Positions 1,848 through 3,017 of a DNA stretch of 64,000 nt are shown here, one piece after another. Under the pieces are notes generated by a model. That model was not told the DNA's origin, made no database searches, and saw only the letters and a list, made by a program, of their open reading frames with translations. Every line of letters starts with the position of its first letter. Position 1 is the first letter of the stretch. The DNA comes from Yersinia frederiksenii ATCC 33641 (GTDB lineage Bacteria > Pseudomonadota > Gammaproteobacteria > Enterobacterales > Enterobacteriaceae), in assembly GCF_000754805.1 (NCBI RefSeq), contig NZ_KN150731.1, positions 3,459,886 to 3,523,885 of the forward strand, given 5' to 3'. A program made the position numbers and the translations under genes.

Positions 1848-3017
1848 ATGAGCAAGACGCTAACGGAAATAGCCCAGCAGCTAAAAGAGACTGATAAGAA
1901 GGTACAGTTGATCTATGCCTTTAATGGTACGGGTAAAACACGCCTGTCTCGTGAATTTAAGGAGCTGGTTGCGCCTAAAAATGCTGGCGATGAGCAGGCT
2001 GACGAAGTAGGGTTATCACGAAATAAAATTCTTTATTACAACGCATTTACCGAAGATCTCTTCTATTGGGATAACGATTTGCAGAGTGATGCCGAACCCA
2101 AGTTGAAGATTCAGACGAACTCTTTCACGGATTGGGTGCTGATTGAACAGGGTCAAGACCAAAATATCATCGCCAATTTCCAGCGTTACGCCAATGATAA
2201 GCTTACACCACGGTTTAACGAGGAATATAAGACCAAAAACAAAGATGAAAAAGAAGTTACAGTAAAAGCGTTTTCAGAAGTGACATTTTCCCTTGAGCGG
2301 GGGGATGATGATCACTTTGGTAATCTGAAAATATCCAAAGGTGAGCAAAGTAACTTTATCTGGAGTATCTTTTACACCCTGTTAGACCAAGTGATAACGA
2401 TCCTCAATGTGGCCGAGCCTAGTGAGCGCGAGTCGAATCAATTTGACCAGTTGGAATATGTGTTTATAGACGACCCGGTGAGCTCATTGGATGAAAACCA
2501 CTTGATTGAGCTGGCTCTTGATCTGGCACAGCTAATAAGATCCAGCGAATCTGGGCTTAAATTCATTGTTTCCACGCACAACCCTTTATTTTATAACGTG
2601 CTTTACAATGAGGTTAAAGCCAAAGGTGGTTACATCCTTAAACGCTTTGAAGATGGCACTTTTGAAATTGAAGATAAGAAAGGAGATAGCAATAAAAGCT
2701 TTTCTTACCATCTGTATATAAAGCGCCTCATTGAACAAGCCATCGAAAAGAACGAAGTTCAACGCTACCATTTTACTTTACTTCGTAACCTGTACGAAAA
2801 ATCTGCTAACTTTCTAGGCTACCCTCAGTGGTCTGACTTATTGCCCGAAAACAAACAGTCTTATTCAAGGCTGGTGATGAATTTTTATAGCCATCGCACA
2901 TTGTCCAATGAAGAAGTGGCCGAGCCAACAGAGCCCGAGAAACAAACGGTAAAGCTGTTGCTTGAACACTTGAAAGATGAGTATGGCTTTTGGAAGCAGG
3001 AAGAACAACATGGTTGA
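1848..3017 (+). CDS. prrC: PrrC-type tRNA-Lys anticodon nuclease
   Basis: PrrC cleaves tRNA-Lys at the anticodon. It is normally held inactive by the associated type Ic enzyme and is released during phage infection by the T4 Stp peptide (known from the E. coli prr locus). This 389-aa protein has an ABC-like NTPase domain: Walker A FNGTGKT (25-31), signature-like SKGEQSN (163-169), Walker B YVFIDDPVSSLD (204-215) and H-loop STHNP (His244). The C-terminal nuclease domain keeps Arg313, Glu317 and His349, with the same 4 and 36 residue spacing as the catalytic R320/E324/H356 of E. coli PrrC. The SNKSFSYHL segment before it lies in the region I associate with the PrrC box. The N-terminus ahead of Walker A looks about 16 residues shorter than the E. 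coli protein as I remember it. The gene lies one base after hsdS and overlaps hsdR, the prototype prr order. Confidence 0.94.
   Translation: MSKTLTEIAQQLKETDKKVQLIYAFNGTGKTRLSREFKELVAPKNAGDEQADEVGLSRNKILYYNAFTEDLFYWDNDLQSDAEPKLKIQTNSFTDWVLIEQGQDQNIIANFQRYANDKLTPRFNEEYKTKNKDEKEVTVKAFSEVTFSLERGDDDHFGNLKISKGEQSNFIWSIFYTLLDQVITILNVAEPSERESNQFDQLEYVFIDDPVSSLDENHLIELALDLAQLIRSSESGLKFIVSTHNPLFYNVLYNEVKAKGGYILKRFEDGTFEIEDKKGDSNKSFSYHLYIKRLIEQAIEKNEVQRYHFTLLRNLYEKSANFLGYPQWSDLLPENKQSYSRLVMNFYSHRTLSNEEVAEPTEPEKQTVKLLLEHLKDEYGFWKQEEQHG

What the first reader, a model, noticed from the sequence alone, without database searches (positions are those of the whole stretch)
1848..3017. PrrC anticodon nuclease gene inside a type IC restriction operon
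Seen: a 389-aa protein between hsdS and hsdR with an ABC-like NTPase and an intact R313-E317-H349 triad, spaced 4 and 36 residues as in E. coli PrrC. Known: PrrC cuts tRNA-Lys in the anticodon, is silenced by the type Ic enzyme EcoprrI, and is unmasked by the T4 Stp peptide. Inferred: this Yersinia-like strain has a two-layer defence, where phages that block restriction trigger a tRNase that aborts infection.
Basis: partly seen in the sequence, partly recalled or inferred. Interest (0 to 1): 0.85.

Follow-up and report, generated by a model that had tools for sequence, protein, structure and literature searches.

The report
PrrC tRNA-cutting gene in restriction operon
A bacterial DNA-cutting defence operon carries a normal, intact-looking copy of prrC, a gene whose known relatives cut the cell's own lysine tRNA when a phage disables the DNA-cutting enzyme; it is a new member of a well-known family, not a new kind of system.

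Summary
Window 1848-3017 encodes a 389-aa protein matching the PADLOC PrrC model over residues 3-387 (E 8.9e-147). R313/E317/H349 align with R320/E324/H356 of an E. coli PrrC, D280 and D215 with D287 and D222. It lies between hsdS and hsdR of a complete EcoR124-type (type IC) operon, downstream of an integrase ORF beside tRNA-Leu(CAA). It starts after a 1-nt gap from hsdS and overlaps the hsdR start by 8 nt. dN/dS is about 0.035 in the two of five comparisons that gave a value. The host has tRNA-Lys(UUU) genes. Best reading: a latent tRNA-Lys anticodon nuclease held by the type IC enzyme and released when that enzyme is blocked. That function is inferred from characterised relatives; activity, trigger and protection were not shown here. 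The arrangement is common: in 76 of the 80 best relatives prrC starts within 30 nt of an hsdS-like end. New member of a known kind. Side observation: Fic fills the prrC position in a congener's type IC operon, and Abi_2 in another member of the order.

The parts
3..584 (+). hsdM, last 193 codons (complete 526-aa ORF at L111:13890-15470, upstream of the window)
   Evidence: Pfam N6_Mtase 5.4e-47; NCBIfam hsdM 4.5e-51, below its whole-protein cut-off because only the end is in the window; complete ORF in L111
581..1846 (+). hsdS, 421-aa type I specificity subunit
   Evidence: Pfam Methylase_S 4.3e-35; PADLOC Specificity_I 2.5e-181
1128..1177 (+). perfect 12-bp tandem repeat (4.2 copies) inside hsdS, coding Thr-Ala-Glu-Leu (TAEL) repeats
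   Evidence: Tandem Repeats Finder, 100% match; translation; TAEL repeats are described for type IC HsdS in PMC3874165 (passages)
1848..3017 (+). prrC, 389 aa, predicted tRNA-Lys anticodon nuclease (ABC-ATPase plus C-terminal nuclease)
   Evidence: PADLOC PrrC 8.9e-147; 259 of 374 aligned residues identical to the E. coli plasmid PrrC in L109
1917..1940 (+). Walker A, residues 24-31 AFNGTGKT
   Evidence: G29 and K30 in 101 of 101, T31 in 100 of 101, A24 in 96 of 101 aligned rows
2469..2492 (+). Walker B / D-loop, residues 208-215 DDPVSSLD (D215 = E. coli D222)
   Evidence: D208, D209 and D215 in 101 of 101
2577..2579 (+). switch histidine H244
   Evidence: 100 of 101
2784..2798 (+). catalytic R313 and E317 codons (2784-2786, 2796-2798)
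   Evidence: R in 100 of 101 (Cys in L046), E in 101 of 101
2892..2894 (+). catalytic H349 codon
   Evidence: 101 of 101
3010..6114 (+). hsdR from ATG 3010 (1034 aa; the longest ORF starts at 2977), type IC motor/nuclease subunit; its start overlaps the prrC end by 8 nt
   Evidence: Pfam EcoR124_C 2e-69 and HSDR_N 9.1e-46; PADLOC REase_I E=0, 1511.6 bits; sequence

Best explanation
The gene is prrC. Its product is a latent anticodon nuclease made from the same operon as a type IC restriction-modification enzyme. By analogy with E. coli EcoprrI, the HsdM-HsdS-HsdR complex binds PrrC and keeps its nuclease off. When something blocks or disturbs the type I enzyme (a phage anti-restriction peptide such as T4 Stp, with DNA, GTP hydrolysis and dTTP as co-signals), PrrC is unmasked, cuts host tRNA-Lys(UUU) next to the wobble base and stops translation, aborting the infection. 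Shown here: family, intact motifs, operon and gene junctions, purifying selection, substrate tRNA genes present. Inferred: activity, silencing, trigger and protection.
For: PADLOC PrrC 8.9e-147 over residues 3-387. 259 of 374 aligned residues (69%) identical to an E. coli PrrC, with triad, D222 and D287 equivalents kept. Complete type IC operon. Its junctions (1-nt gap after hsdS, 8-nt overlap with hsdR) are the same as in two E. coli prrC operons. dN/dS is 0.035 and 0.037 in the two of five comparisons not saturated at silent sites; HsdR gives 0.034 and 0.049 in two of three. In the order sample, all 18 of 18 genomes with a PrrC of at least 50% identity also have a type IC HsdR of at least 70%. 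PrrC distances follow HsdR distances best (Mantel r 0.48, against 0.35 for HsdM and 0.18 for HsdS; 55 of 84 loci). A more distant relative, PrrC170 (35% identical to EcoPrrC), with its type I operon blocks T1 and T7, and its PrrC targets tRNA-Lys (passages of PMC11555353).
Against: No activity data. prrC is physically next to hsdR, so the Mantel signal may reflect linkage alone. Some relatives keep an intact prrC beside a short subunit ORF: hsdR in L024, L035 and L069 (the last two near contig ends), hsdM in L010 (325 aa), hsdS in L037, L055 and L066. This does not fit a simple rule that loss of the enzyme must kill the cell, unless these are assembly errors or split genes. PrrC170 protects against T1 and T7, so T4 Stp is unlikely to be the only trigger.
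Confidence: 0.85

Rival explanations
1. The protein is a PrrC-family nuclease, but in this host its main trigger is not a phage anti-restriction peptide. It responds to stress or nucleotide imbalance (dTTP, DNA damage, restriction alleviation) and phage defence is secondary.
For: A review passage notes that several pyrimidine nucleotides, dTTP most strongly, activate latent PrrC without Stp, and suggests a cellular role not related to phage (PMC3014915). No Yersinia phage is among the 60 of 680 Stp-matching records listed, but 620 were not seen.
Against: Integrase-linked locus, patchy distribution (a clear PrrC in 2 of 25 genomes of the genus) and McrBC genes downstream fit a defence role better than a core stress role.
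Confidence: 0.25
2. The gene is a degraded or silent leftover of a mobile restriction operon and does nothing.
For: One close relative, L005 (Serratia symbiotica), has only short ORFs for hsdM, hsdS, prrC and hsdR.
Against: The ORF is intact, the motifs are kept and dN/dS is about 0.035. 79 of 80 retrieved relatives have a prrC ORF of at least 340 codons.
Confidence: 0.05
3. It belongs to another ABC-nuclease family (RloC, PDC-S06, AbiEii/OLD-like) rather than PrrC.
For: Pfam gives only AAA_13 (1e-12) and a sub-threshold AAA_21 match; PDC-S06 matches at 8.6e-13.
Against: The PrrC model beats PDC-S06 by 487 to 46 bits. The protein has no cysteine, so no CxxC zinc hook.
Confidence: 0.02

Closest known systems
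E. coli EcoprrI/PrrC (prrABCD; passages of PMC3014915 and PMC3874165)
   Same: Gene order hsdM-hsdS-prrC-hsdR, type IC HsdR, ABC-ATPase motifs, Arg-Glu-His triad with the same spacing, wobble-contact Asp (D280 = D287), tRNA-Lys(UUU) in the host
   Different: 69% identity over aligned residues to the E. coli plasmid PrrC of L109; lacks about 16 residues present there near residue 17 and has about 15 more between residues 123 and 147. The CTr5X protein itself was not compared. DNA specificity of this HsdS is unknown
PrrC170 of Klebsiella quasipneumoniae (passages of PMC11555353)
   Same: PrrC plus type I operon; reported to target tRNA-Lys and to block phages T1 and T7
   Different: Only 35% identical to EcoPrrC by that paper; not compared directly with the window protein
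RloC (passages of PMC2610378)
   Same: ABC-ATPase followed by a C-terminal nuclease with an Arg-X3-Glu-X36-52-His motif
   Different: RloC has a zinc-hook/coiled-coil insert and only rarely maps to restriction loci; the window protein has no cysteine and lies in a type I operon
Other effector genes in restriction operons: Fic/Doc, RhuM, Abi2 (passages of PMC3710099)
   Same: Occupy or share the same operon in related loci
   Different: Unrelated to PrrC or only distantly (Abi2 is also filed as HEPN); no evidence here that the type I enzyme silences them

Membership tests
PrrC anticodon nuclease | Full-length match to the PrrC family model | tested here: met
   PADLOC PDLC02360, 8.9e-147, residues 3-387 of 389
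PrrC anticodon nuclease | ABC-ATPase motifs (Walker A, signature, Walker B/D-loop, switch His) | tested here: met
   The positions counted (24, 29-31, 163, 165, 166, 208, 209, 215, 244) keep the window's residue in 96 to 101 of 101 rows and are the same in E. coli PrrC
PrrC anticodon nuclease | Catalytic triad R320-E324-H356 | tested here: met
   R313, E317 and H349 in register; 100, 101 and 101 of 101 rows
PrrC anticodon nuclease | Wobble-base contact Asp287 | tested here: met
   D280 aligns; Asp in 89 of 101 rows
PrrC anticodon nuclease | Embedded in a type IC operon between hsdS and hsdR | tested here: met
PrrC anticodon nuclease | Cleaves tRNA-Lys in the anticodon loop | not testable with these tools
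   Needs RNA from expressing cells; the substrate genes are present
PrrC anticodon nuclease | Silenced by the linked type I enzyme and unmasked by Stp | not testable with these tools
   Needs experiment; only linkage and distance correlation shown
PrrC anticodon nuclease | PrrC Box motif | not tested
   Two primary PrrC papers that I looked for are not held, and the passages read do not give the motif's letters
RloC anticodon nuclease | CxxC zinc hook in a coiled-coil insert | tested here: not met
   No cysteine in the protein; coiled coils were not predicted
HEPN RNase superfamily | Rx4-6H motif | tested here: inconclusive
   Upstream of H349, position 341 is mostly N or S (R in 3 of 101) and position 345 is mostly N, Q or H, so no conserved Arg lies 4-6 residues before H349; the conserved Arg is R313. 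PMC3710099 files PrrC as HEPN (passages)
Type IC restriction-modification | EcoR124-type HsdR, HsdM, and HsdS with TAEL repeats | tested here: met
   EcoR124_C 2e-69; 12-bp repeat coding TAEL

The most novel reading that the evidence does not exclude
The hsdS-hsdR junction of type IC operons may be a general socket for guard effectors. Different toxins (PrrC, Fic, Abi_2, perhaps RhuM) are swapped in and held in check by the same type I complex, so that blocking restriction releases whichever effector the strain carries. In the 28 of 30 order-search loci that I scored (the window's own included), the position held prrC in 18, Fic in 1, Abi_2 in 1, a small transposase-like ORF in 3, no room for a gene in 4, and was not determinable in 1. 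The loci are those most similar to the window's HsdR, and 7 of the 18 with prrC come from one genus. Silencing is shown for none of the non-PrrC genes.
Probability: 0.25. Interest if true: 0.6.

Novelty: new member of a known kind. Interest (0 to 1): 0.3.

Why it matters
It adds a well-preserved PrrC, on the 4.9-Mb contig of another enterobacterial genome, to a classic guard system: an effector that watches a restriction enzyme and fires when the enzyme is inhibited. The comparison of operons offers a small testable idea, that the position is exchangeable among toxins, and the host's extra tRNA-Lys(CUU) offers another, that one lysine isoacceptor may survive PrrC.

Tried and rejected
Other families: RloC and PDC-S06 rejected; no tree was built. 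Solved structures: phmmer gave nothing at E up to 1, and the profile of A2 only 4 weak matches, the best 0.12 to 5da9 around the Walker B region, so no structural evidence was added. Phage records: no PrrC relative in 50,697 records at E 1e-5. Island right end: a 20-nt piece of the tRNA-Leu 3' end was not found in the window with up to 3 mismatches, and a 27-nt piece only at the tRNA itself in the genome, so the right boundary is unknown. tRNA-Lys(CUU) as a prrC-linked escape: rejected as linked, since the loop pattern is in 21 of 25 genomes of the genus and a clear PrrC in 2. Published work on Yersinia prrC: one search of the held library (terms PrrC, Yersinia, restriction-modification) listed 9 papers; I saw only the listing and abstract starts, and none of those describes this. 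Most subscription-journal papers, among them primary PrrC papers, are not in that library. Two searches for restriction-operon cargo genes listed 4 papers and 1 paper; apart from PMC3710099 I read none of these.

Full report
What is there. The window opens inside hsdM. The genome around it (L111) shows lptF- and lptG-like ORFs (names recalled from their sequences, not tested), a tRNA-Leu(CAA) gene, an integrase ORF of 430 aa (Pfam Phage_integrase 1.2e-19), then hsdM (526 aa), hsdS (421 aa), prrC (389 aa) and hsdR. hsdM and hsdS overlap by 4 nt. prrC starts after a 1-nt gap from the hsdS stop. The hsdR ATG at 3010 lies inside prrC, giving an 8-nt overlap. Two E. coli prrC operons have the same gap and overlap. 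Such junctions suggest coupled translation, so that PrrC and HsdR are made together; this is an inference.

Is it PrrC. The protein matches the PADLOC PrrC model at 8.9e-147 and 487 bits, the next family at 8.6e-13 and 46 bits. Pfam gives AAA_13 and a sub-threshold AAA_21, NCBIfam nothing. Against an E. coli plasmid PrrC of 396 aa (L109), 259 of 374 aligned residues are identical. R313, E317 and H349 align with positions 320, 324 and 356 of that protein, D280 with 287 and D215 with 222. These are the positions named in the literature for the triad (PMC2610378, passages), the wobble contact and the Walker B mutation (PMC3014915, passages). In a set of 101 PrrC rows, 99 of them distinct (the window; 79 of the 80 loci, L005 being too short; G006, L109 and L110; and 18 loci of the order search), E317 and H349 are invariant and R313 is Arg in 100 (Cys in L046). 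The set was chosen by similarity to the window protein, so conservation is expected; it shows that the window copy has lost none of the positions counted.

Is it maintained. Nei-Gojobori dN/dS is 0.035 and 0.037 against L003 and L004; silent sites are near saturation (pS 0.68 and 0.66), and three further comparisons (L002, L006, L007) were saturated and gave no value. HsdR gave 0.034 and 0.049, with one saturated comparison.

Where relatives sit. One search found 458 relatives and kept the 80 best. In 76 of these 80 the prrC start is within 30 nt of an hsdS-like end, in 3 it is 31-500 nt away, and in 1 (L031, where prrC starts at base 17 of the contig) no hsdS was found. An hsdR-like start lies within 50 nt of the prrC end in 57 (in L002 the computed value is an artefact of extrapolation; its first match starts 4 nt before the prrC match ends), 51-500 nt away in 4, 501-1600 nt away in 17, and was not found in 2 (L053 and L058, whose contigs end about 1.3 and 0.9 kb further on). 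Longer gaps hold extra genes. Of those between prrC and hsdR I tested four: RhuM (L011), Fic (L061), Bro-N (L008) and an AAA_14/DUF4143 protein (L049). Of those between hsdM and hsdS I tested three: YhcG nuclease (L010), Fic (L036) and KilA-N (L002).

Intactness. The prrC ORF is at least 340 codons in 79 of 80. 63 of 80 have prrC, hsdM and hsdR all intact by my length cut-offs. In 13 of the other 17 a subunit is cut or missing at or near the end of the held DNA; the remaining 4 are L005 (short ORFs in all four genes), L010 (hsdM 325 aa), L024 (hsdR 466 aa) and L035 (hsdR 98 aa, near the contig end). hsdS is short in L037, L055 and L066, in which prrC, hsdM and hsdR are intact. These do not fit a strict 'enzyme loss kills' rule, though draft-assembly errors and split genes are possible.

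Distribution. In the genus, 3 of 25 genomes match at E up to 0.001; two are PrrC (the window's own and G006, 58%), and G008 is a weak 31% match inside a 763-aa frame, so probably not PrrC. In the order, 23 of 295 match, 18 of them at 50% identity or more; all 18 also have a type IC HsdR of at least 70%. No phage record matches at E 1e-5, but one E. coli copy lies on an IncY plasmid that also carries terminase and late-promoter-activator genes, and 113 of 72,556 plasmid records match.

Co-variation. For 55 of 84 loci with all four proteins scored, distances of PrrC correlate with HsdR (Mantel r 0.48), HsdM (0.35) and HsdS (0.18), none reached in 999 permutations; HsdM with HsdR gives 0.53. Partial r is 0.37 with HsdR given HsdM and 0.13 with HsdM given HsdR. 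This agrees with HsdR as a partner (precipitation of HsdR by PrrC antiserum is cited in PMC3014915), but physical linkage and operon transfer could give the same.

Substrate. In the copy read the anticodon arm is the same as in that E. coli gene. Because most anticodon mutants of tRNA-Lys are very poor PrrC substrates (PMC3014915), the CUU isoacceptor may be spared. It should read AAG only (established decoding rules), and its loop pattern is in 21 of 25 genomes of the genus, so it is not a prrC-specific adaptation.

Trigger. T4 Stp matches 680 phage records at E up to 0.1, mostly Escherichia phages (463). The listing shows 60 of the 680. Matches of 92% (K1ind2) and of 58-79% also occur in phages of 43-51 kb, far smaller than T4; the weakest cover only residues 1-18 or 1-19 at E 0.02-0.1 and may be chance, although residues 1-18 are the part said to act on EcoprrI. 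Whether any phage of this host carries Stp remains open. PrrC170 protects against T1 and T7, so other triggers probably exist.

The exchangeable position. In G003, a congener with an 81% identical HsdR, the gene between hsdS and hsdR is Fic (PF02661, 8.1e-22), starting at the last base of the hsdS stop. In L134, from another family of the order, it is Abi_2 (PF07751, 7.1e-56). The order search returned 30 loci; I scored 28 (L152 and L153 were left out). The position holds prrC in 18 (the window's own included), Fic 1, Abi_2 1, a transposase-like ORF 3, no room for a gene 4 (gap up to 171 nt), not determinable 1. Transposase-like is my reading of the sequence, not a family search. The loci are the best HsdR matches, not a random draw, and 7 of the 18 are from one genus (g55). 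PMC3710099 already notes PrrC/RloC genes with RhuM and Fic/Doc genes in restriction operons, and Abi2 genes in such operons (passages), so the association is known; the strict swap at one junction is the part I did not see stated in the passages read.

Verdict. A new member of a known kind.

Noticed in passing
L112:5138-6139 (G003, same genus) and L134:326-1252: A Fic gene, respectively an Abi_2 gene, fills the hsdS-hsdR position that prrC has in the window.
   Followed up: partly
window 1128-1177: Perfect 12-bp tandem repeat (4.2 copies) in hsdS coding TAEL repeats; by analogy with EcoR124 (PMC3874165), copy-number slippage would change the spacing of the DNA recognition site.
   Followed up: partly
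L116:165-240 (own genome): A tRNA-Lys with CUU anticodon beside the UUU genes; the loop pattern is in 21 of 25 genomes of the genus and this tRNA might be spared by PrrC.
   Followed up: partly
window 15574-18953: An AAA ATPase ORF of 688 aa (Pfam AAA_5 2e-13; McrB by its position) and a McrBC-family ORF of 438 aa (Pfam 1.6e-104), probably a second restriction system, downstream of RadC, DUF4942, YagK/YfjJ and GTPase ORFs that look like an island.
   Followed up: partly
phage records H82, H90-H100: Stp-like peptides, several without annotation, in phages of 43-51 kb that are far smaller than T4; 92% identity in K1ind2, weaker elsewhere.
   Followed up: no
L005: In Serratia symbiotica a close relative (91% in its best segment) has only short ORFs for hsdM, hsdS, prrC and hsdR, as if the whole operon decays together.
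   Followed up: partly
window 27651-36989, minus strand: A 2531-aa filamentous-haemagglutinin-like ORF and a 568-aa transporter-like ORF that look like a two-partner secretion pair; read from the ORF list only, no family search.
   Followed up: no
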